Shown piece by piece: positions 52,314-64,000 of a stretch of DNA of 64,000 nt. This DNA is from Dehalococcoidia bacterium (GTDB taxonomy: Bacteria; Chloroflexota; Dehalococcoidia; Bin125), in contig JAJEJC010000001.1 in the NCBI GenBank assembly GCA_022828105.1, positions 424,090-488,089 of the forward strand, given 5' to 3'. Position 1 is the stretch's first letter. The number at the start of each line of letters is the position of its first letter. Position numbers and translations under genes: made by a program. The notes beneath the pieces were generated by a model, which was not told the DNA's origin, ran no database searches, and was given only the letters and a program-made list of their open reading frames with translations.

Positions 52314-54281
52314 TCAGCTTGACAGGGGTGGGGGGCCTGTCGGACCAGATTCAGCCTCTCCGTCCGATGTGCAACGGGAGAGCCAGAGTGAACCGCCTGC
52401 GTTGATCGTGAAATCCGTCGAGCCGGGCACGAGGATTCCGTCCCTGATCGCGTACCGTTGCCACTGCGTTCCATCCCAGCTCCACAACGCGCACACGTTG
52501 CGTCCGCTTAGCGCTGTCCAGAGGTTGGCCGCTGTGGTCGAGGCGCAGTCGTCTCGCCAATTGGTGTTCGTGCTCAACGCTTGGACGGTCAAGCAATCCC
52601 AGCCGGAACGAGCGTCCACGGTCCATGAGACCGTGTCGGTGTCTTCCTGCTCCGGGGGCCCTGTAGCGGTCGCGGTCAGGGTCAATGACTGCGACCCCGC
52701 CGAACTCTTACACGCGATGGGTTCGGAGCCGCCCGTCACCGTGCGGGAACCGATCTTCACCACGACGCTCCCGCTGCCACCGGTCACCTTCCAGCCAACC
52801 GTCACACTGCCACCGGTCAAACAGCGATCCGGGGAAACAGACCCTCTGATGACAAATGCTGGCGCCGGAGGAGGCGCTGCGTGAGTGCTGCTTGTGGCCG
52901 ACGCCCAATCCGAAGTGGCATCGGGATACTCAGTCAGCGTCGCACGCACACACAGGAGATAGCTGGTCGAGTCGTTGAGAGGTGAAAATCGATGCTCGAG
53001 GCCCGAGACTGTGATGTCTGCCACTTCCCCGCATGTGGCAGACGCACCCTCAACGACGTGTCGAACCTCATATCCGTCTGCACCGTTAACCTGGTCCCAC
53101 TCCAACGTCAGGCTGCTTCCGCTGCGCGCAGAAATCCGAAGATTCTCCGGTAGTAAGAGCTTCACCGTCACTATTGCCGGGAGGCTGGCTGTGTCGTTAT
53201 CGACGTAGCCAAAGTCCGTCCCCTCGACCCTGATCGGCAACACTTTCGTCCTCGACACGATTCGATACTTCGTCCTACCGCCGGGTTGATTCGGCAGCAC
53301 TGCCGATGTGGAGTTCGCTGGCACTTCTTTGACGAACACCCAACCGGATTCGCTTGCTCGCTGGACTTCGAAGTGAGACTCGATAAAGGTGTCAGGTTGC
53401 TCCCACGTCAAGGTGACTTGCTGCCGATTGGCTTCGCCTCTCAGATTGGTCACCAGCGCTGGAAGATATGCCGTTCGATAGTCGTCTTTATCCAGCTGAG
53501 TCGGAGCACCATCAGCTGGATCACACTGCGGTACGAGGTTCTAACTATTCAAGAGTGACTTCTTGTTAGGATTAGCACTTCCTGCGAGGAAGTCCGGGTG
53601 CCCAGCATGATTGCAGTAGTAGTCTGCTAGCGCCAGAATTTGCCCGAGTTCGTGAGCTATGTCATGAACGAGGTCGCGACCGGAATCGGATGGGACATAC
53701 TCTTCACTGACATCGTTGAGGCAAAGCGGGGACTCATGATGATTTGTGCTCTTCCATGATACGAGCGCCACTGATCCGTATCTTTACTGAGCCCATCGCC
53801 ATAATGCATCCTGTCAAAGCCGGCGCAGGCGCGACTCGATTGGTAGGGGCACACCATACCTGTTACTATCTCAGTCCTTGAGCCAAACATGCTTCCAACA
53901 CGAACGCCCATAGACACCGTGAGGCTGACTATGCCGTTCTCCGCCTCCCAGAGGCTTTCGGCCGTGTTACAGTTCTTCGAGACGGTGAACGCCGTGAAAC
54001 CGAGCGCCGTGTTCCAGCGCTCAATCGCCAGCGCGGTGGCCCTCGGAAAGGCTGTGCTGCAGACCGGAATCGACATGCCGTCAATAGGATTTCGTGTGAT
54101 CCACTTCGGGCCACGCTCTTCTTCCTTCTTATCCGATTGAAGAAATCCGAGATGGCTCTCCTCGCCTATATCCGCCTGCGCAGTCATTGGCCGTTAGGGT
54201 CGCTAGGCAAATCGCATACAGGAGCACCATTGTGACGATACCTAGCTGCCACTGTTGCAGCCTTCGGAAGTTGCGCCTCAT
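52314..54281 (-). pseudogene. Degraded matrixin-like protease with FN3 domains
   Basis: Pieces in order from ATG 54281: a signal peptide (IVTMVLLYAICLATLTA), a one-base shift at 54187-54188, a matrixin-like N-domain (RWNTALGFTAFTVS), a shift at the AAA run near 53783-53786, then HDIAHELGQILALAD, an in-frame TAG at 53543-53541, and open coding continuing in the same frame into two or three FN3/beta-sandwich modules and a Cys-paired C-terminus. The protease motif reads HELGQ, so the second zinc His is replaced by Gln. Several independent lesions favour a pseudogene; sequencing error could explain some. Confidence 0.7.
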
Positions 54282-54448: not shown

Positions 54449-56341
54449 TTAGGATCTGCCGTCAGACGCCCATGCTCTTCCCACCAGCCGCAAGCGCATT
54501 CCGGTCGGCACATACATCACAATGGCCGTCGGTCTTGCCAGTCCTTGCAGCCGGTAAGTATGCCCGCCCTCGACCGTGTACCCGTTGGGCAGCACTCGGA
54601 TGCCATCAGGCCCTACTCTCGGCACGCTAGGAGCGTCAAGCCAACTGACAGCGGCGACATTGCCACGGGCCTCGTCGAAGTAGCTCGCACTTGCTCTCTG
54701 AGTCACTGTGGCGCCGCAGGCATCTGCAGTCTCATGTGTGATAGTAAACAGAGTGCGGGAAGGCCTCGCAGAGGTATCCGCAGTTCCGGTTACGCGGAAG
54801 TGGTACCAGCAATTGCTGTATGGGAACCATGTGATTCGGTCACCTACCTGGACGGTAGCTAAGATGCTTGTGTAGTCGCGGCCGCGATAGCCCGTGTTAT
54901 TCACTAGCAAGGCGACCGCAGCGCTCACTTCAGCGAACGTCGTGGCTCCGCTCGTGAAGTCGCTCGCATCGCGCAGGAAGCTGTAGGGCCCTGCGCTCGT
55001 GGCGCCCTCGGTCGACTGGAGATTGTCGTAGCGCAGCGTCTCGCGTTCGCTGGACACTGTCGACGTCAGGCCAGCGACGGCGCTAGCTGTTCCCGAGCGC
55101 GGACCTGCCACGCTGCCGCTGGTCGCACGCAGGCGAAAGCTGTACCGTGCGTCCGCGGTCAGACCGGATACGGTGTGGTCGGTCGTGGCTCCTGTGGATC
55201 CCGCGATCTTGGTCCACGCGCCCCATTGGCCCTCGTCCCGCCGTTGGCGGTACTCCCAATGCGTGACCCCGGTCGCACGTTCAATACTCCAGTTCAACGC
55301 CACTGCTCCGGAGGCAGCCGTACGCGCGCTCAGGCTCGGCGCGCCCTGGGCAACAAGTTCAACCATCGTCTCTGCCGACGCGCGGACCCCGCGTTTGTCT
55401 CTCGCGAGTGCGCTGAACGTCTTGCTCTGCTCGGCCAGCGGCGCGCCCGTCTGTTCGTCCAAGGCCAGCGGACCACAGTTGACCCGGTGCGACTGCACGG
55501 TTGCCAGATCGATCTTCTTGTCGCCGATGAACAGCCGGTGCGGCAAGAGCCCGCCCGTAATCTTCCAGCTCAGCTCGGTCAGCGTGTTGGCCGTGCAGAC
55601 CGCGCCCGAGGAAGTCAAGGTCAGCGTGAGCGGATCGACCGCGTAGGCGGTCAACCGCGCCGCCGGGCTCTGCGCCCCCTGACCGTTGAGCGCCAGCAGG
55701 TTGATCGCGTACTCGGTCTGGTCCTCCAGTCCTGTGAGCTCGTAGCTGGTCGCACTCCCGGCCAACTCGACCGAGCCCAGGAATTGGTCGTCCGATGGCT
55801 TGCGCCAGCGCAGCCGGTAGCCGGCCGCGGTCCAGCCCGCGGGTTGGCTCCAGGACACGCTCAGCGAACTGGCGCTGGCCGCCGTCAGGCTCAGCTCCTG
55901 GGGCGCGGTCAGGGGCGTGCGGAAGTTGCCCCGCAGGATCGCCAGAATGGCGCCGTTACCGCCCGAGACCAGGACGCGGACCACGTAAAGCCGGCCCGCC
56001 AGGAGGCCGGTGATCCGATAGCGGCCGCCCGTCGCGGCGTAACTCGGCCCCTGCGGAAACTGCTCGAACCGGCGCCATTGGATCGTGTAGAGCGCCGCCC
56101 CCTCGACCTCGTCCCAGGTCACTGCCAGCGAACTGGGCGTGGCCGACTCCAGGTTCAACGGCAGCTCCGGCGCCCCGTCGCCCTCGGCCTCGTCCGCCCC
56201 GGCCGCGCCCCAGACGAGAACGACCGCGAGCAGCACGGTCGCGACGACGGCCGTCCAGCGGCGCAGCCGGATTGGGGAGCGTCGAGCGGGTGTGGGACCA
56301 ACCTGTACCAAGAGACCGACCTCCGTGAGTCGCTTGCCCAT
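54449..56341 (-). CDS. Secreted fibronectin-III repeat protein (C-terminus frameshifted)
   Basis: 630 aa. Signal peptide at about residues 29-49 (VVATVLLAVVLVWGAAGA). FN3 modules follow (SSLAVTWDEVEGAALYTIQW, SLSVSWSQPAGWTAAGYRLR, VALNWSIERATGVTHWEYRQ) with a beta-sandwich module between (LSWKITGGLLPHRLFI). The C-terminus is a non-FN3 domain with WFPYSNCWYHFRVTG. The frame ends after GRAWASDGRS, but shifting by one base in the GGG at 54480-54482 opens 50 more plausible residues (HGRLTADPNATYIDEESG to HPPQM at 54331). Surface adhesion or carbohydrate binding is the usual role of such proteins; not shown here. Confidence 0.8.
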   Translation of the reverse strand: MGKRLTEVGLLVQVGPTPARRSPIRLRRWTAVVATVLLAVVLVWGAAGADEAEGDGAPELPLNLESATPSSLAVTWDEVEGAALYTIQWRRFEQFPQGPSYAATGGRYRITGLLAGRLYVVRVLVSGGNGAILAILRGNFRTPLTAPQELSLTAASASSLSVSWSQPAGWTAAGYRLRWRKPSDDQFLGSVELAGSATSYELTGLEDQTEYAINLLALNGQGAQSPAARLTAYAVDPLTLTLTSSGAVCTANTLTELSWKITGGLLPHRLFIGDKKIDLATVQSHRVNCGPLALDEQTGAPLAEQSKTFSALARDKRGVRASAETMVELVAQGAPSLSARTAASGAVALNWSIERATGVTHWEYRQRRDEGQWGAWTKIAGSTGATTDHTVSGLTADARYSFRLRATSGSVAGPRSGTASAVAGLTSTVSSERETLRYDNLQSTEGATSAGPYSFLRDASDFTSGATTFAEVSAAVALLVNNTGYRGRDYTSILATVQVGDRITWFPYSNCWYHFRVTGTADTSARPSRTLFTITHETADACGATVTQRASASYFDEARGNVAAVSWLDAPSVPRVGPDGIRVLPNGYTVEGGHTYRLQGLARPTAIVMYVPTGMRLRLVGRAWASDGRS

Positions 56342-56783
56342 GCCTCTCTATTGTCCTAGAAATCATGTGAGCTATTCGTGCGTCCAAGCCTCTGTATCGG
56401 TGCTTGTCAAGTGTTCCTGGGAACTCATGCAGATTGCAGGCCCGTTCCGAGCAGGTCTCAGCGTGAACATCGTCTTCGCGACGACAGGAAGTGCACAGTC
56501 CCCGTCAGCCTGGGGCGGTTGCTTCAAGACGCCGCGTGTATCGCCGATAACGCAGGTAGCGTGGCGCGGACAACGGACCGAACACTTGCGTGAATCTCGC
56601 CGCAGGCGTCCGATCCACCAGACCGGTCCGGACATACCGTCGAATCCAGAGCCAGTTCTGTCGTTCCGACGCGACGCCGAGGAGAGCGCGCGGTTGGGAC
56701 CCATCCAGAGCCTGTAGTTCCCCTGCAGCATCCAGGCCTTGCGCGGACACCACGCCGCGCCTGCGCCCCACGGAGCTGCGGGG
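56342..56783. other. Intergenic stretch without a supported gene
   Basis: About 440 bp between divergent genes. No convincing coding frame. It holds the second copy of the 44-bp repeat. Must contain the promoters of both neighbours, but no clear -35/-10 pair stands out. Confidence 0.5.
56612..56655. repeat. 44-bp dispersed repeat, copy 2
   Basis: Direct repeat of 52247-52290 (38 of 44 bases). Here it lies upstream of the replication-relaxation gene. The two copies bracket the two FN3 genes. Confidence 0.5.
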
Positions 56784-58508
56784 ATGCTCAGCGATCAACG
56801 GCTTTCCGACGAACAACGACGACTTCTGCGACTGATCGGTCTAATGCCTCTGGCCTCGGCCGACGACCTCTCACTCGTACTGGACACTCCGGTCGACGCG
56901 CTGCAACGCCGATTGGCCCGGTTGAGACGGAACGGCTGGCTCGGCTCGATCCGGCGCGGGATGATCGAGCCGCCCCGCGCGCGCTGGTTCCTGACCCGCC
57001 GCTCGGTCGAGCGGCTCTACGCGACCGACCACTCGCACCCCGGTCCGCGCGAGCGCCACCGCTACCAGCTCGCCTGGCCGCTGCCCGGCACAGAGACCGG
57101 CCGCCGCGATCAGCCACCGCTCGACCTGCGCCACGAGCACCTGGGGCCGGAGACCGAGCGCTCAGGCTCGCTGCTGCGTCTGCCCGCCGACGACGCCCAG
57201 CACGAGCATCCGCCCTGGACCGCGACCGGCCGCGGCGCGCAGTACTGCCTGCGCCGGCTGGCGATGCTGGAGACGATCTACCGGCTCGCACCCGTCCTGC
57301 TGCGCGACGGCTACCTGCGCGTGCCCGCTCCGACGCCGCCGTTGAGCGACTTCCGCCTGCTCAGACGCAACGGTTTCTTCGTCGCCGTGGCCCGCTACGG
57401 CGACGACCTCTGGGCGCCCTTCAGCTATGCCGGTCTGCACGCCACCGAGCGCGTGCTGCGGCGCAAGCAGCAGCACCGCTTCTGGAACCTGGACTGCTAC
57501 CTCGCCCGAGAGCGGCGCAGCTTCCGGATCAGCAACCGCGTCTTCTACGAGGACCCCGAGCAGGAGGTCGAACCATCGGCCCTGGTCGTGATCGCCGCCG
57601 ACCGCTGGGCCGCCGACCTGGCCGGACGCAGCCTCGACGCGTCCACGCCGACCCTGGTCTGCACCCCCGACCGGCGCTGCGGACCGGCCGTCGAACCGCG
57701 TCCCTCGCGCGACCGCATCTCCGAGCCATGGGCGCGGAGCATCCTGGGCCGGCCCGAGCGACTCGCCCGCTGGCTCAGCCGCCGTCCCGACCTGGAGATG
57801 CTCGACCGTCCCGCCGCCTACCGGCTCTTCCTCTTGCTGGCCGAGTTCCCCGCCATGCGCGCCGACGCGCTGCGTGAGATCGCCGGCGTCTCGCCGCGCC
57901 TCGCCGGCCGCATCCTGCGCGGCTTCATCGAGGCCGGACTGGCCGTGCGCCTGGACGGCCGCTTCTACCTGGCCGAGAACGGCATCCGCCGCGCGGCCAA
58001 CCTCAGCCGCATCCGGCCGTCCATCATCCGCAGCCGACACGGCGCGTACCTGCAGCCGCGCTACCGACGCCACGAACTGATCCACAATGACGCCGTCAAC
58101 CGCCTCGCGCTCGGGTTCGCCCGCGAGGGCGCGCGCGTCTACGGCGGCTGGCGCGGCGAGGTCAACGTCCCCGGCCTGACCCAGCTCCGGCCCGACCTGC
58201 TCGTGCTCGTCGAGGAGGGACCCTTCGGTCCCGGGCCGCACGCGGTCGAAGTGGAACGCACCGCGGTCGGCCGGCGTTCGGTCGCGGCCAAGCTCAATCC
58301 CTACCGCCGCGCCGCTGCCGCGCGCCAGGGAATGCCCGCGCTGTTCGTCTGCGAGACCGAACGCGCGGCCGCCAATTTCGCCGCCGCGGCCGGCTCGCTG
58401 CCGCTGCTCGTGACCACCCTGACTGCGGCCCGATCGGGCCCGTTGACCGGCGATCGCACGGTCTGGATCGGAACCGGCCGGACCGTCAGCCTGCGCTGCC
58501 GAGACTGA
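56784..58508 (+). CDS. Replication-relaxation family protein
   Basis: 574 aa. N-terminal winged helix (LSDEQRRLLRLIGLMPLASADDL, split at about residues 8-30), middle region with a second winged helix (about 360-410; REIAGVSPRLAGRILRGF), and a C-terminal nuclease-like segment with RPDLLVLVE, HAVEVERT and a following Lys (VAAKLNPYRR), recalling a PD-(D/E)xK fold. Family members occur on actinobacterial plasmids and integrative elements. Unusually rich in Arg and Ala. No integrase or relaxase is adjacent. ATG 56784 has GGAG eight nt upstream. Confidence 0.7.
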   Translation: MLSDQRLSDEQRRLLRLIGLMPLASADDLSLVLDTPVDALQRRLARLRRNGWLGSIRRGMIEPPRARWFLTRRSVERLYATDHSHPGPRERHRYQLAWPLPGTETGRRDQPPLDLRHEHLGPETERSGSLLRLPADDAQHEHPPWTATGRGAQYCLRRLAMLETIYRLAPVLLRDGYLRVPAPTPPLSDFRLLRRNGFFVAVARYGDDLWAPFSYAGLHATERVLRRKQQHRFWNLDCYLARERRSFRISNRVFYEDPEQEVEPSALVVIAADRWAADLAGRSLDASTPTLVCTPDRRCGPAVEPRPSRDRISEPWARSILGRPERLARWLSRRPDLEMLDRPAAYRLFLLLAEFPAMRADALREIAGVSPRLAGRILRGFIEAGLAVRLDGRFYLAENGIRRAANLSRIRPSIIRSRHGAYLQPRYRRHELIHNDAVNRLALGFAREGARVYGGWRGEVNVPGLTQLRPDLLVLVEEGPFGPGPHAVEVERTAVGRRSVAAKLNPYRRAAAARQGMPALFVCETERAAANFAAAAGSLPLLVTTLTAARSGPLTGDRTVWIGTGRTVSLRCRD

Positions 58509-58696: not shown

Positions 58697-59458
58697 TCAT
58701 TTACAAGACGAGATCGTCTCCTCCACTCGCGGACGGCAACGCCGATCAGGTGCGTTGTACATGAGGGAGAAATGTTGATCATTAGGATCTGGATCGGTAG
58801 CAGCCTGCCCAGAGCCCGGCACGCGCAATCGATTGCATGACGTGTAGTCACTGAGCCCTAACACGTGCCCAAGTTCGTGATTCAAAGTAGAGAGTCGTAC
58901 TGTTCCAATGACAATAGTCGAGTACTCAGTGCTCTGATACACGGATCGCGCCGAGAACAGCTTTCGGGGCGGATTAGCCTGTTTGGTCGAATAGTACGCA
59001 GCTCCCGCTCCTGATATGAGACGCACCCGCACTTCTACATCCGCACCGTCCGAGTTGCTGCTACACGAATTCGTCGCTCCTGTTGGGATGTAATGCTCAA
59101 ACGGTCCGCTGCTGTTCCCATCGCTGTCGTTGAAGGACATGTTGGACAGCGCTGTCGCCCAGGCATCGATCGCGCGTTGCAGCTCAGCGGTCACGGTCGA
59201 ATCATCGGTGCAGATAATCGTAGCTCTACCTTCGATTACATTCTGATTCAGCCACTCCGCGCCTTCGGTGTTTGAGTTATCGTGCGCTGCGACCAGCGGC
59301 GCTCCACCGTTGTCTGGAGCGCTGCGCACCGGCGACCTGAAATCCGGCTCTACGGACCTGTCTTCGACGGTCGAACTGGTAGCGGGACTTGGGCCGATGC
59401 CCAATGAACCTGCGGCGACGGCCAGCCCCGTCACTATCGCCAATGCTAGTAGTCTCAA
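58697..59458 (-). CDS. Matrixin/snapalysin-like secreted zinc metalloprotease
   Basis: 253 aa. Signal peptide (LALAIVTGLAVAAGSLGIG). Zinc-binding HELGHVLGLSD (about residues 193-203) is the HExxHxxGxxD form of metzincins such as snapalysin, and SLMYN downstream supplies the Met-turn. The prodomain-like start and CSSNSDGADVEV segment fit the matrixin fold. The ATG overlaps the stop of the upstream beta-sandwich gene by ATGA, so the two are coupled. Substrate unknown. Confidence 0.85.
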   Translation of the reverse strand: MRLLALAIVTGLAVAAGSLGIGPSPATSSTVEDRSVEPDFRSPVRSAPDNGGAPLVAAHDNSNTEGAEWLNQNVIEGRATIICTDDSTVTAELQRAIDAWATALSNMSFNDSDGNSSGPFEHYIPTGATNSCSSNSDGADVEVRVRLISGAGAAYYSTKQANPPRKLFSARSVYQSTEYSTIVIGTVRLSTLNHELGHVLGLSDYTSCNRLRVPGSGQAATDPDPNDQHFSLMYNAPDRRCRPRVEETISSCK

Positions 59459-60467
59459 TCCGAACTCCCTTCACGTTGCGGCGGCTTGCCGACTGAGTCG
59501 ACCAGCGAGTCAATCGCCGCACCGATCGAATCGGAGCTCGTCCCGGTCGCGCCTTCGGACACCTCAGGATGACGCCTGTGCAACGCGCCGTCTTCGTACA
59601 GATAAATCCAGGCATCAACACCCACGATCAAGTGATCGTGTACTCTGTCTCCGCACCTGGGATTTGGGTCATTCACAGCACATTCTCGCTCCACCATTCC
59701 TCCGACCTCCACGTCGTATCCCTTAGGTGCCGTGACCAGGAAGCCAAGAAAGCGATAGGTCTCGCCGCGACGAAGCATGTCGCCGGTTGTGCCAGTACCC
59801 AGATCGAGCAAAACGTAGACGGCTACGGTCGCTTCCGCCGTTCGACGTTCGCGTCTGTCACTACCCCGCGAATCCTCTTCCAACCGGAGTCGACGTTCGG
59901 GTTGGCCCGATACAGGCGCGTCACACCGTCTTGCGGGCTGACTTCCTCAAAGGACGTACCCACCGAAGAATCGGCGCAGGCAACCATCGCCTCTCCAGAA
60001 GCGCCTACATAGCTCCCTTCCGCGTCCCTTGATTCGCCGTCGACCACCAGTGTGTAGGGCAGAGTGCCGCCGACGACGTGCCACCGCACCGATGTTTTCG
60101 CGAACACCCGCCAACCGGCCGACACAAACTCATGCACGCGAGCGCCTTCATCATTCGTCCGCAGCTCCCATCCCCCTACGTTTCGTGCCCGCTCGGTCTC
60201 GCAGATCTCCGCTGCGCTGAGCGTCAGCGCCAAGGCCTCACTGTCCTGCTGCGTCTCCGGTGAGTGCCTCTGTTCTTTCCGCAGACCGCCCGGACCCTCC
60301 GCCGACACTCCTTGCGACTCCGCTTCCGTCACCTCTGTCACCGCCTCAGTCCGTTGGCCGACGCCTGCCTCTCGGGCAGCGAAGACGGCAACAACGGCCA
60401 CTACCCCAGCCACGACCACGAACGACGCTAGGTGTCGCATCCGCAGCTGGCTCAATCTCGTTCGCAT
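59455..60467 (-). pseudogene. Membrane-anchored beta-sandwich protein P1, frameshifted
   Basis: N-terminal TM anchor (about residues 14-32), polar linker, then the P-family core (VRWHVVGGTLPYTLVVDGES, then SRDAEGSYVGASGEAMVACA). The frame breaks near 59845-59847: alignment with P2 (VTDANGRTAEAS) shows one missing G at the AACGTCGAACG site, after which the second frame continues RTAEATVAVYVLLDLG through IVGVDAWIYLY to 59455. One base repairs the gene to about 337 aa. Real loss of function and a sequencing error are both possible. Coupled to the metalloprotease downstream. Confidence 0.8.
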
Positions 60468-60776
60468 GTCGGTCTCCGTCTCTGAAGCGGCTCAGCCCAG
60501 GCTCAGAAGGCCTGCGACGCGCCACTCACGCGCCTTCGGTCGCCGCCCTCGTCTGCCATGAGCGCTCGAAGATGAAAGCTCTATGTTGCCGGCTGATACA
60601 GGATTCACCGTCTGCGTGAATCGGGTTAGGGAGCGGAACAGCGGCACCGGGCGGAGGCTGAAACGAACGCAACGGTGTCTCCTTGGGGTCCGGTGACCTC
60701 CCATGAAAGCAAATCGGTTGCAGCGTAACGGAACATTTATGACTAACATAGGACTATTGGGGAACAACATGTGAGG
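60468..60776. other. Intergenic stretch without a supported gene
   Basis: About 310 bp between the end of P2 and the start of P1. I see no convincing coding frame. The P1 leader at 60474-60493 shares about 18 of 20 bases with the P2 leader (61776-61795). Confidence 0.5.
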
Positions 60777-61769
60777 TCATGCCATCTCGTGGGAGTTGGT
60801 CTTCGGCTGAGTGCCCACCGAATCGACTAGGTCGTCGAGCAGGCTGTCAACCAAGGCAGCGTTCGAGTCGTCAGCACCGGCCACTCCGTCAGATTCTGGC
60901 CACCGACCCGCTTCGGCAAAATCGCTTCGGTAGAGATGTACACCGGCATCCAGCCCGACAATTCCGAAGCACCATTCCTCTTCGCAGCGCTCGTCCGCGG
61001 GGAGGTCCTCTGGGCACTCAGGCTCAGCGGTGCCGGCGATGAACATGTCATGCGTGGCCGGCGCAGTGATCAGGTGGCCGGCCACCCTGTAAGTCTGGCC
61101 GCGCCGGAGAACTTGTTCGTTCTCGTGCTCGTCCAGGGTGCCGTCCACTCGCAGGATCACATAGACCTCAGTAGAGGCCTCGGCGGTCCGTCCGTTGGCA
61201 TCGGTCACGACAGCGCGAACCGTCTTCGAGCCTGAGTCAATCATCGGGACAGCCCGAAGTGCGCGGTCACCAGCCCCGTCAATGAAGGACTGCACGGACG
61301 TGGTCGCGCAGTACGTCACTCCTTGACCGCTTGCCCCTATGAACGGCCCGTACTCGTCCTCGGACGCACCGTCGATCGTCAGCTTGAACGGACCGGTTCC
61401 CCCGCTAACCGTCCATGACACCTGAAACTGCCTGACCTCATAGTGCCCAACGAAGCTTCGTACAGTGCGGACATAGTTGCCCTCATCGTCGTAGACCGCC
61501 TCATCGACGCCGTAGGATTGGCCGCGGGTTGTCTGGCAGCGGCTCGGACCGGTCAGGGTCACGGTCAGCGGCTCTGCGGACTGCGCTTGCTCCTCGTCCC
61601 TTTGTTGTTGCGTCTTCTCGCCTTCGCTCGACTCAGTCCCTGCTCCAGCCCCTTCGCCGTCCAATCCTATCTCCTGAGCGCCGCAGACAGTGGTTGCGGC
61701 GACCGCGCTAGCCAGCACCAGAAACAGTCCCAGGTCGCGGGCTTTGAGTCGCTTCACTGCGGCACTCAT
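60777..61769 (-). CDS. Membrane-anchored beta-sandwich protein P2
   Basis: 330 aa from ATG 61769. N-terminal anchor (about residues 10-28; LGLFLVLASAVAATTVCG), Gln/Glu-rich linker, then the shared core: TVTLTGPSRC, YDDEGNYV, VSWTVSGGTGPFKLTIDGAS, GPFIGASGQGVTYCA, IDSGSKTVRAVVTDANGRTA, EVYVILRV, GQTYRVAGHLITAP and IVGLDAGVHLY. Cys pairs are conserved. It is intact, unlike P1. No protease gene follows it directly. Function unknown. Confidence 0.8.
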   Translation of the reverse strand: MSAAVKRLKARDLGLFLVLASAVAATTVCGAQEIGLDGEGAGAGTESSEGEKTQQQRDEEQAQSAEPLTVTLTGPSRCQTTRGQSYGVDEAVYDDEGNYVRTVRSFVGHYEVRQFQVSWTVSGGTGPFKLTIDGASEDEYGPFIGASGQGVTYCATTSVQSFIDGAGDRALRAVPMIDSGSKTVRAVVTDANGRTAEASTEVYVILRVDGTLDEHENEQVLRRGQTYRVAGHLITAPATHDMFIAGTAEPECPEDLPADERCEEEWCFGIVGLDAGVHLYRSDFAEAGRWPESDGVAGADDSNAALVDSLLDDLVDSVGTQPKTNSHEMA

Positions 61770-61918
61770 ACAGCGCTCCGTCTCTGACACGGCTCGGCTC
61801 GGATGCGGCAACGGCGACCTGCGGCGCCGGCGCGCCCCGAGCAACGTCGCCCGGAGGCTGCTCGACATGCGGCTGCGGACCCTGGCGGCGCGTTTACTGT
61901 CTAGTCGGGCGCGGCGGC

Positions 61919-62203
61919 CTATGCGATGACCATGTTGGGACCCCAGCCATCCGCATCAGCCACCGCCACCGTGATGATGTAGCGCTTGCCGCTCTGCAAC
62001 CCGGTCAACTCCACCGAGCGAGGCTTCCAGCAAGCCAAGAATGAACAAGAGCGGAGATACTTCCGCGGGAATATGTCGCGCGTCTGCCACGTGGCCCCGG
62101 GGGTGTTCTCAGCCCAACGCACCCGGTATCCGTCGACGTTGTCGGGCAGCGTCTCAGGGACAACAGTTCCGCCCCAAAGACGCTTCGCCGGGGAGCTAGA
62201 CAT
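61919..62203 (-). pseudogene. Isolated fibronectin-III domain fragment
   Basis: 94 codons with the FN3 pattern DGYRVRWAENTPGATW, SVELTGLQSGKRYIITVAVA and DADGWGP. No signal peptide, partner domain or RBS. It looks like the 3' remnant of an FN3 surface gene similar to that at 54449-56341. Confidence 0.5.
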
Positions 62204-62749
62204 CCAATCGGAACCGCAACTCGAAAGTTCTCGATTTTGTCCAGTTTGGTGGACCGTCGTGTACCGAACTGCGAACTTTCGTGTGGGAGGTAGTACTGCG
62301 ACATCCAGGCAGGCAATTCCTCAGCCCAAGGCACGGGCCGTGAGGGCAGCGAGGGCGCGCAGCAGCGAGGGTAGATGCGATCACCTTGCTCTTAGTGGCC
62401 GCCCGGAGAGACGCGCCGCTTTCGTTCCCTAGTCAACGTTGGCGCTAGCCAGGCGGAGCGATTCTCGACGCCATCGATACGGTCTCAGGAGCCGACATCA
62501 GGCCCGACTACAGAGACGGCTGCGAAGTCACCGGAGGCCGACAATGCGCACGGCCAAGCGCTAGGCCTGGGAATCTTCGAAACCACCATGCAGTCGGCAA
62601 GCGGAGCTTCGCCTCAGATCTTTGCCGAAAACCGCAACGCTAGATGCTTTTCGACCGAGGCAGGTCTCTTGCCTTGAACTGCCCCAAGGTGGACCTGTGT
62701 AGCGCTCTGATATCGTGAATTTCCGGGAAGCAAGGGGAGGGTGTCCTGA
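62204..62749. other. Intergenic stretch without a supported gene
   Basis: About 545 bp before P3. Short frames exist, but none carries recognisable features. It may hold the degraded upstream part of the FN3 fragment and the P3 promoter. RBS AAGGGGAGG for P3 is at 62732-62740. Confidence 0.5.
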
Positions 62750-63772
62750 GTGGGGGAACGCCTTAAGCGGATCGGGGTCCGACAAGCGGGCACCTTCGTG
62801 ATGATCGCGGCAATCGTGGCCGTCTCGGTCGTGATGATCGGTCGCGAGCTCGGGATTGGTCGGCAGGCGGCAGCGGTGCCGGAGGCTGCAAGCGCGGAGC
62901 CGACGGCGGAACCGGCGAACACCCCGCCCGCCACATCTGACCCTGCCGCTGAACCCCAGGAAGCTGAACCCGAGGAGTCGAGCGAGAAGCTGAAGCTGAC
63001 CCTGGAAGCTAATCCCTACTGCGAAACCGGCGGCGGCATAGGCTTTTCTGGCTCAGTGTTCGAGTACGACGATGACGGCAACCCAGTCGGTCGCACAGAC
63101 GTGGACCTTGGGTATGGACGGGTGGCGGAAACGCAGGTTCGCTGGGCGGTCTCGGGCGGTACTGCACCGTACCATTTGACGATCGACAACGAACCTCGGG
63201 ACGGACGTGGCCCTTATGCAGGAGCGACCGGCGTCGCGTCGGTCAGTTGCGCTCCGAACCCAGGCAAGGTGTTTTATGACGACTATGAGGAAAAGCGACG
63301 TTACCGCGAGGACCCTCAGATCGACTCAGGTCTCAAGACCATCCACGCCATTGTGACTGATGCCGCAGGTGCAACCGCGGCTGAATCAATCGACATCTAC
63401 GTAATCCTTCAGCTCGGAGGCGCGGGAACGATGCGTGGGGGGGAGTGGCATCAGTATCGACTCAATGCAGGTAAGACCTACCGCTATGAGGGTCACCTAT
63501 TCACTGTTCCTGAGAGCATAACGATTTTGCCGGGGGATACGTGGGAAGCAGACGGAGGTGGTTGGGGCCAGGTACTGCATGTCGCGGGCTCTGAAGTCGA
63601 GATCCACATCAATCGCCATGGCGAGGAAATTGGGCGCTCTTTTGCACGCTCGACGTCGCTGGCCGAAGATGCAATCTCTGGGCCTGACTATGGATCTGCG
63701 TCAATCAATGAAGCCCTTGACAGATTCATCGCATCGCGTGGCAAGCCGCCGACAGTTAACCCCAACGAATAA
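62750..63772 (+). CDS. Membrane-anchored beta-sandwich protein P3
   Basis: 340 aa from GTG 62750, with AAGGGGAGG nine nt upstream. N-terminal TM anchor (about residues 14-34), Ala/Pro/Glu linker (about 40-80), then the P-family core: YDDDGNPVGRTDVD, VRWAVSGGTAPYHLTIDNEP, GPYAGATGVASVSCAP, IDSGLKTIHAIVTDAAGATA and YVILQLGG, GKTYRYEGHLFTVPE. It is followed after 5 bp by a metalloprotease gene, the same order as P1 and its protease. Function unknown; the anchored P protein could be an inhibitor, chaperone or substrate of the protease. Confidence 0.8.
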   Translation: MGERLKRIGVRQAGTFVMIAAIVAVSVVMIGRELGIGRQAAAVPEAASAEPTAEPANTPPATSDPAAEPQEAEPEESSEKLKLTLEANPYCETGGGIGFSGSVFEYDDDGNPVGRTDVDLGYGRVAETQVRWAVSGGTAPYHLTIDNEPRDGRGPYAGATGVASVSCAPNPGKVFYDDYEEKRRYREDPQIDSGLKTIHAIVTDAAGATAAESIDIYVILQLGGAGTMRGGEWHQYRLNAGKTYRYEGHLFTVPESITILPGDTWEADGGGWGQVLHVAGSEVEIHINRHGEEIGRSFARSTSLAEDAISGPDYGSASINEALDRFIASRGKPPTVNPNE

Positions 63773-63777
63773 CATCC

Positions 63778-64000
63778 ATGACTGTTCGTCTATTCCTCTA
63801 TGCCGTAGCGGTTGGACTTGCCACGGCGTTTGGTGTCTTGGGTGGCTTCGGACATGAAGCCGAGAGCAGGGTGCATGTTGCGCCGAGTCACAGCAGCGGG
63901 TTCTTCGAACCACGCAACCCCGCATCGCATGCCGACGCCAGCACCTGGGTCGGCGCAAAGAACCGCCTCAACCAGCATGTCGTTGAAGGGGCAACGACGA
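63778..64000 (+). CDS. Matrixin-like secreted metalloprotease, 5' part only (runs off window)
   Basis: Starts at ATG 63778 and stays open to the window end (74 codons). Signal peptide (LFLYAVAVGLATAFGVLGG), then a region ending NRLNQHVVEGATT that matches WLNQNVIEGRATI in the protease at 58697-59458. The catalytic part lies beyond the window, so the protease call rests on N-terminal similarity and on the shared P-protease gene order. Confidence 0.65.
   Translation, partial: MTVRLFLYAVAVGLATAFGVLGGFGHEAESRVHVAPSHSSGFFEPRNPASHADASTWVGAKNRLNQHVVEGATT

What the first reader, a model, noticed from the sequence alone, without database searches (positions are those of the whole stretch)
58697..64000. 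Repeated two-gene cassette: anchored beta-sandwich protein plus metzincin protease
P1 followed by protease (60467-58697) and P3 followed by protease (62750-64000) share gene order, tight coupling and sequence, in opposite orientation; P2 is a lone extra copy and 52314-54281 is a decayed protease-FN3 relative. The membrane-anchored P protein could regulate, tether or be cleaved by its cognate secreted protease, a possible new surface-remodelling or competition system.
Basis: partly seen in the sequence, partly recalled or inferred. Interest (0 to 1): 0.62.

Follow-up and report, generated by a model that had tools for sequence, protein, structure and literature searches.

The report
Swappable surface anchor–protease gene pairs
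Relatives of sponge-dwelling Chloroflexota bacteria carry pairs of touching genes, one for a surface-anchored protein and one for a secreted protease; because the last domain of the first changes together with the cutting domain of the second, the two are probably a matched protease and its keeper.

Summary
The cassette is real and reaches beyond the window. P1-protease (P1 split by a one-base frameshift) and P3-protease are paralogous pairs; a third pair lies elsewhere in the genome. All 16 proteases of this metzincin subfamily with readable upstream sequence directly follow, or are fused to, a partner. This includes two genomes of another family, where the partner seen there is not a P (LRR-FN3 in G107). 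The constant piece of the partner is its C-terminal ~110 residues ("C-dom"), which match no family searched. One relative has three single-ORF fusions. Between this genome's two long-tailed copies, the Ig domain (84%) and tail (83%) are conserved, but C-dom (34%) and catalytic domain (31%) differ. Across nine pairs, C-dom tracks the catalytic domain independently of the Ig domain. Proteases are repeatedly truncated behind intact partners. Best reading: a surface-anchored cognate partner that binds the catalytic domain and probably restrains it, like potempin-KLIKK, Mtz-Tim and AprI-AprA pairs, but with an unrelated, module-swapping partner. Pairing is well supported; inhibition versus tethering versus cleavage is untested. 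Verdict: new variant of a known kind.

The parts
62750..63772 (+). P3: membrane helix, acidic proline-rich linker, PKD/Ig-like domain, C-dom
   Evidence: ORF; helix 3-33 and confident beta domain in the model; PKD-like by weak fold match
63413..63769 (+). C-dom of P3 (residues 222-340), the part that varies with the protease
63778..64000 (+). Start of giant metzincin M3 (>2,326 codons; continues in L004:5868-12845)
   Evidence: HELGHVLGLGD motif and Met-turn
59455..60467 (-). P1, in two frames (60467-59823 and 59883-59455) joined by a one-base frameshift near 59,845
58697..59458 (-). Metzincin M1, 253 aa, TTG start overlapping the P1 stop by 4 nt, HELGHVLGLSD, no FN3 tail
60777..61769 (-). P2: lone P copy with C-dom, no protease or protease remnant behind it (upstream start at 61868 also possible)
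52314..54281 (-). Decayed metzincin-FN3 gene (frame breaks, stop, HELGQ)
   Evidence: motif fragment also found by profile (C4:477516-477776)
54449..56341 (-). FN3 surface protein before the decayed metzincin; its end weakly resembles C-dom and, in another frame, reaches an ATGA overlap with the metzincin start at 54281: candidate decayed fourth pair
   Evidence: FN3; C-dom match only E 0.7-0.9; frames. Weak

Best explanation
The cassette encodes a cognate pair. The upstream gene makes a protein held on the outer face of the membrane: a short basic N-terminus, a membrane helix (or a lipobox in some copies), a spacer (PKD/Ig here, LRR-FN3 in G107) and a C-terminal domain, C-dom. The downstream gene, starting within a few bases of the partner's stop, makes an exported metzincin, often with a long FN3/Ig-like tail. 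C-dom binds the catalytic domain of its own protease and most likely keeps it latent or inhibited at the producer's surface, so that the producer is spared and the enzyme acts once released. Shown: universal adjacency and near-overlap, single-chain fusions in one genome, block-like divergence of C-dom plus catalytic domain, co-variation of the two independent of the Ig domain, and repeated loss of the protease with the partner kept. Inferred: direct binding, inhibition rather than mere tethering, and surface location. The substrate (host matrix or neighbours' surface proteins) is unknown.
For: All 16 readable proteases have a C-dom partner directly upstream or fused, with gaps of -4 to +5 nt. 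Three single-ORF fusions in G002, where the protease's own signal peptide is gone. In another family the partner body is LRR-FN3 but C-dom is kept (profile-profile E 1.9e-5). P3-M3 against P4-M4: Ig 84%, C-dom 34%, catalytic 31%, tail 83%. Partial Mantel C-dom with catalytic given Ig: r 0.44, p 0.004 for nine pairs; r 0.63, p 0.0035 for six. About nine proteases broken behind intact P, one broken P before an intact protease. Precedents: potempins encoded before KLIKK proteases (PMC7296668), Listeria Mtz-Tim (PMC8235301).
Against: No interface was modelled and nothing was measured. C-dom and the catalytic domain are physically adjacent, so a linked block transfer could give the co-variation without binding. 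Proteases are bigger mutational targets, which weakens the decay argument. Eleven of 29 P loci show no protease trace. Tethering alone would explain the fusions equally well. The anchor is predicted, not shown.
Confidence: 0.52

Rival explanations
1. Tether: C-dom is a docking site that holds the secreted protease at the cell surface without inhibiting it, turning an exoenzyme into a surface enzyme. The G002 fusions are the covalent form of the same arrangement.
For: Fusions place anchor, C-dom and protease in one chain; the anchor is kept across copies, as helix or lipobox.
Against: Does not predict the retention of intact partners after protease loss, nor P arrays. A generic dock need not co-vary with the catalytic domain.
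Confidence: 0.25
2. Cleaved partner: the protease cuts P and releases its ectodomain, which is the active signal or effector, as reported for Listeria Mtz-Tim.
For: A direct precedent for an anchored partner cleaved and released by its metzincin (PMC8235301); a long flexible linker follows the membrane helix.
Against: The linker is the least conserved part and is almost absent in some copies next to a protease (L064); lone P copies would have no cutter.
Confidence: 0.12
3. No specific partnership: repeat-rich surface genes cluster and recombine, and the P-protease order is inherited linkage without interaction.
For: Tails of the two copies were homogenised (dS mostly 0.1-0.5 against saturation in the block), and both contigs end inside the same repeat. 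The P Ig domain resembles repeats inside the proteases.
Against: The same order and overlap recur in another family with a different partner body; fusions keep the order and remove the internal signal peptide.
Confidence: 0.08

Closest known systems
Potempins and KLIKK proteases of Tannerella forsythia (PMC7296668)
   Same: A small anchored (lipoprotein) partner encoded directly before a secreted protease and specific for it; pairs vary together between strains.
   Different: Potempins are small lipoproteins reported as inhibitors; here the partner is large, mostly helix-anchored, multi-domain, without detectable similarity to a solved structure, and inhibition is untested. Different phylum.
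Mtz-Tim pair of Listeria monocytogenes (PMC8235301)
   Same: Secreted metzincin with HExxHxxGxxH/D plus an anchored partner encoded next to it, found as pairs in several bacteria.
   Different: There the protease gene comes first, the partner is TIMP-like and is cleaved and released, and the pair is phage-linked. Here the partner comes first, has a PKD/Ig, FN3 or LRR body, and no phage context was seen.
Alkaline protease AprA and its inhibitor AprI of Pseudomonas (from own knowledge and cited in PMC8235301)
   Same: Bacterial metzincin with a dedicated inhibitor.
   Different: AprI is a small periplasmic inhibitor, not a surface-anchored multi-domain protein; no sequence relation was found by profile search of the PDB.
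Polymorphic toxin-immunity systems (from own knowledge)
   Same: A variable active domain swapped together with its partner; lone partner copies and partner arrays.
   Different: The variable domain is N-terminal, the partner is upstream and surface-anchored, no delivery system was looked for or seen, and toxicity is unproven.

Membership tests
Metzincin metallopeptidases | Zinc motif HExxHxxGxx(H/D) | tested here: met
   M1 and M3 HELGHVLGL.D, M4 HELGHILGLSH; lost in two copies as HELGQ
Metzincin metallopeptidases | Met-turn downstream of the zinc motif | tested here: met
   Invariant Met (M224 in M3) in the alignments
Metzincin metallopeptidases | Fold / sequence similarity to solved metzincins | tested here: met
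   Profile matches ADAMTS-5 (E 1.1e-5), serralysins and snapalysin-type proteases around the motif only; own model useless
A named Pfam or NCBIfam metzincin family (M7, M10, M12, M6) | Score above the curated cut-off | tested here: not met
   All hits below cut-off
PKD/Ig-like domain (P spacer) | Beta-sandwich fold | tested here: inconclusive
   All-beta domain with confident core strands; best short matches are collagenase PKD domains but none reaches E 0.001
Potempin / Mtz-Tim type pairs | Partner gene adjacent to a secreted metzincin | tested here: met
Potempin / Mtz-Tim type pairs | Partner homologous to potempins, TIMP or AprI | tested here: not met
   No significant PDB sequence hit for the P or C-dom profiles; so 'works like', not 'is a'
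Potempin / Mtz-Tim type pairs | Partner inhibits (or is cut by) the protease | not testable with these tools
   Needs biochemistry or complex prediction
Polymorphic toxin-immunity systems | Active domain and partner swapped as a block | tested here: met
   on few pairs
Polymorphic toxin-immunity systems | Toxic activity and neutralisation by the partner | not testable with these tools

The most novel reading that the evidence does not exclude
A polymorphic, toxin-immunity-like protease system: C-dom plus catalytic domain is an exchangeable specificity module between a constant surface anchor and a constant FN3 tail, and lone partners are kept as immunity against the proteases of neighbouring kin in dense sponge microbiomes.
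Probability: 0.2. Interest if true: 0.82.

Novelty: new variant of a known kind. Interest (0 to 1): 0.6.

Why it matters
Matched pairs of a secreted metzincin and an anchored partner are known from a few bacteria. This would be an unrelated case in Chloroflexota, with a partner domain (C-dom) absent from the libraries searched, natural fusions, and a natural domain-swap experiment between two copies in one genome. It makes a simple question testable: does the partner domain set protease specificity and latency? It also gives a marker (C-dom immediately before a protease) for finding such pairs in uncultured symbionts, where FN3 and LRR surface proteins are abundant but unexplained.

Tried and rejected
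P as a signalling receptor: rejected, since only about 14 residues precede the hydrophobic stretch of the membrane helix (sequence; helix). P or protease as a known defence protein: no PADLOC hit. Assigning the protease to a named metzincin family: nothing above cut-off. Structure of M1 from its sequence alone: useless (pLDDT 35). PDB fold search with P3: only weak PKD-like and Ig-like matches. PDB sequence search with the P and C-dom profiles: nothing significant. Genome-contig scan with the P alignment: two loci only, but it named relatives. A phylum-wide protease search added only motif-level hits (G451, G093). Structured RNA near the cassettes: no Rfam match. A literature search for metalloproteases in sponge Chloroflexota gave nothing relevant.

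Full report
Setting. The window is contig 4, bases 424,090-488,089, of a 2.74 Mb genome in 10 contigs. A scan of named genomes found two records with close P genes, both titled Dehalococcoidia bacterium, isolates jk18x9bins.53 and jk18x40bins.26. The jk18 bin names are those of the Caribbean Ircinia sponge study PMC9531527, which also reports enrichment of FN3 and LRR proteins. The organism of the window is therefore a relative of sponge-associated Dehalococcoidia; its own habitat is not shown.

Observation. P1-M1 on the minus strand and P3-M3 on the plus strand are paralogous pairs, and P2 is a lone copy between them. P1 is interrupted by a one-base frameshift near 59,845: its anchor and Ig part and its C-terminal part lie in different frames. 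M1 is a short metzincin (253 aa). M3 continues beyond the window for more than 2,326 codons with FN3 and Ig-like repeats, and the contig ends inside it. A third pair, P4-M4, lies on contig 2 and ends at the same sequence, so both contig ends are probably caused by the shared repeat. The genome has four P genes and three proteases, and every protease is directly behind a P. The decayed metzincin-FN3 gene at 54281-52314 is confirmed: the zinc motif reads HELGQ, and there are frame breaks and a stop.

Parts. P has a short basic N-terminus, a membrane helix, an acidic proline-rich linker, an all-beta PKD/Ig-like domain and a C-terminal domain with a conserved G-x-T-Y-R-x-x-G and a terminal helix with an S-x-G-x-x-P motif. 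Two P proteins of the G001 array have lipobox-like starts (LAGC, SAGC) instead of the plain helix, so anchoring seems to be kept by different means; this is read from sequence, not tested. The protease has a signal-peptide-like start, a short pro-segment with an invariant His in an H-x-D motif in most copies, the HExxHxxGxx(H/D) motif and a Met-turn. In the proteases and P proteins only the FN3 repeats give a credible curated Pfam match; a Myco_19_kDa hit on the repeats is taken as spurious.

Distribution. P occurs in 13 of 393 sampled genomes of the class, all in one family. The protease profile finds five genomes of one genus and one of another family, G107. In G107 the gene before the protease is an LRR-FN3 protein, not a P, but its last ~110 residues resemble P's C-terminal domain (profile-profile E 1.9e-5, probability 78%, 92 columns; a plain profile search without the G107 sequence gives only E 0.2), and stop and start overlap as ATGA. 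A search with C-dom then gave further partners in families f33 and f2, and two more pairs: a second in G107 and one in G227. C-dom is thus the constant element, and the body before it varies.

Adjacency counts. Proteases with readable upstream sequence: G000 3, G004 2, G014 4, G012 1, G002 3 (fused), G107 2, G227 1, that is 16, all with a C-dom partner immediately upstream or fused. Two of the 16 (second G107 pair, G227) were found through C-dom and so are not independent; several of the 16 are truncated genes. One further protease at a contig edge (G014:C15:26) could not be judged. Thirteen measured junctions have gaps of -4 to +5 nt (the G227 junction reads TGATG, an overlap of one base). 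In the other direction the link is looser: of 29 P loci with readable downstream sequence, 9 are followed by or fused to a protease encoding the catalytic region, 9 more by a truncated protease or a matching protease start, and 11 by neither. The remnant calls rest partly on short matches (best E 3.8e-8, weakest 0.016), but all begin in the same register as true proteases.

Fusion. In G002, three single open frames of 1,262-1,353 aa run membrane anchor, Ig, C-dom, protease, repeats; the signal peptide of the protease is missing and the pro-segment follows C-dom directly. One of the three has HELGQ and is probably inactive.

Module swapping. Comparing P3-M3 with P4-M4: Ig 84% identical, C-dom 34%, catalytic domain 31%, tail 83%. 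Synonymous changes are near saturation in the central block and low in most of the tail, so the tail was homogenised more recently. The M4 catalytic domain is 68-75% identical to those of G004 and G014, whose tails are only 59-62% identical to M4's, whereas the M3 and M4 tails are 83% identical. P4's Ig is likewise nearest to P3 (84% against 59%), while its C-dom is nearest to G004 (52% against 34%). So a block made of C-dom plus catalytic domain, bounded by domain borders, has a different history from both flanks. The Ig domain itself has high synonymous divergence, so for P3-P4 alone faster evolution of C-dom could substitute for a swap; the incongruence with G004 and G014 is what argues for exchange. 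Over nine pairs, C-dom identity tracks catalytic identity after removing the Ig effect (partial Mantel r 0.44, p 0.004; six non-fused pairs r 0.63, p 0.0035), while Ig does not track it after removing C-dom. Physical linkage inside the block could produce this without binding, so it supports but does not prove recognition.

Asymmetric decay. Proteases are truncated or interrupted behind intact P genes in about nine cases (G014 four, G012, G001 two, G007, G015), against one broken P before an intact protease (P1 here). Partners seem to have value without their own protease, as expected of an inhibitor. The proteases are larger targets, which weakens the point.

Mechanism and rivals. The evidence says cognate pair (about 0.8). 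Whether the partner inhibits, only tethers, or is cut by the protease is not decided. I favour a restraining surface partner because co-variation with the catalytic domain and retention of lone partners fit inhibitors, and because two studied pairs of similar layout exist: potempins encoded directly before KLIKK proteases and described as their specific inhibitors (PMC7296668), and Listeria Mtz-Tim, where the anchored partner is TIMP-like but is cleaved and released (PMC8235301). The conserved His of the pro-segment may provide separate latency; this is inference.

Novelty. The kind, a secreted metzincin with a linked anchored partner, is known. The partner domain, the exchangeable bodies, the natural fusions and the block swapping were not found in the libraries and papers searched here. 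Verdict: new variant of a known kind, interest 0.6.

Noticed in passing
window 56739-58508 (+): 589-aa protein with a Replic_Relax domain (PF13814, above cut-off) between the decayed pair and M1; it may mark a mobile element.
   Followed up: no
window 62247-62300; G000:C2:161167-161218; G000:C1:6541-6581: A 41-52 bp repeat (88-95% identical) lies upstream of P3 and P4 and at one unrelated intergenic place; it contains imperfect inverted repeats.
   Followed up: partly
L063:5514-9832, L066:7036-11354, L086:3977-8292, L087:8121-12472: A conserved tandem pair of large exported proteins (about 660 and 770 aa), each with two Ig plus C-dom units and no Pfam hit, often close to P loci in the genus.
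   Followed up: partly
L062:3753-10120 (G001): Array of six P genes without a complete protease; at least two still carry a protease start behind them.
   Followed up: partly
window 53,670 region; L067:2614-6402: The same loss of the second zinc His (HELGQ) occurs in two separate copies, one in an otherwise open fused gene.
   Followed up: no
L004 and L012 contig ends; L063 and L065 ends: Giant repeat proteins end at identical sequence at contig ends in two genomes, which points to assembly collapse in the tails.
   Followed up: no
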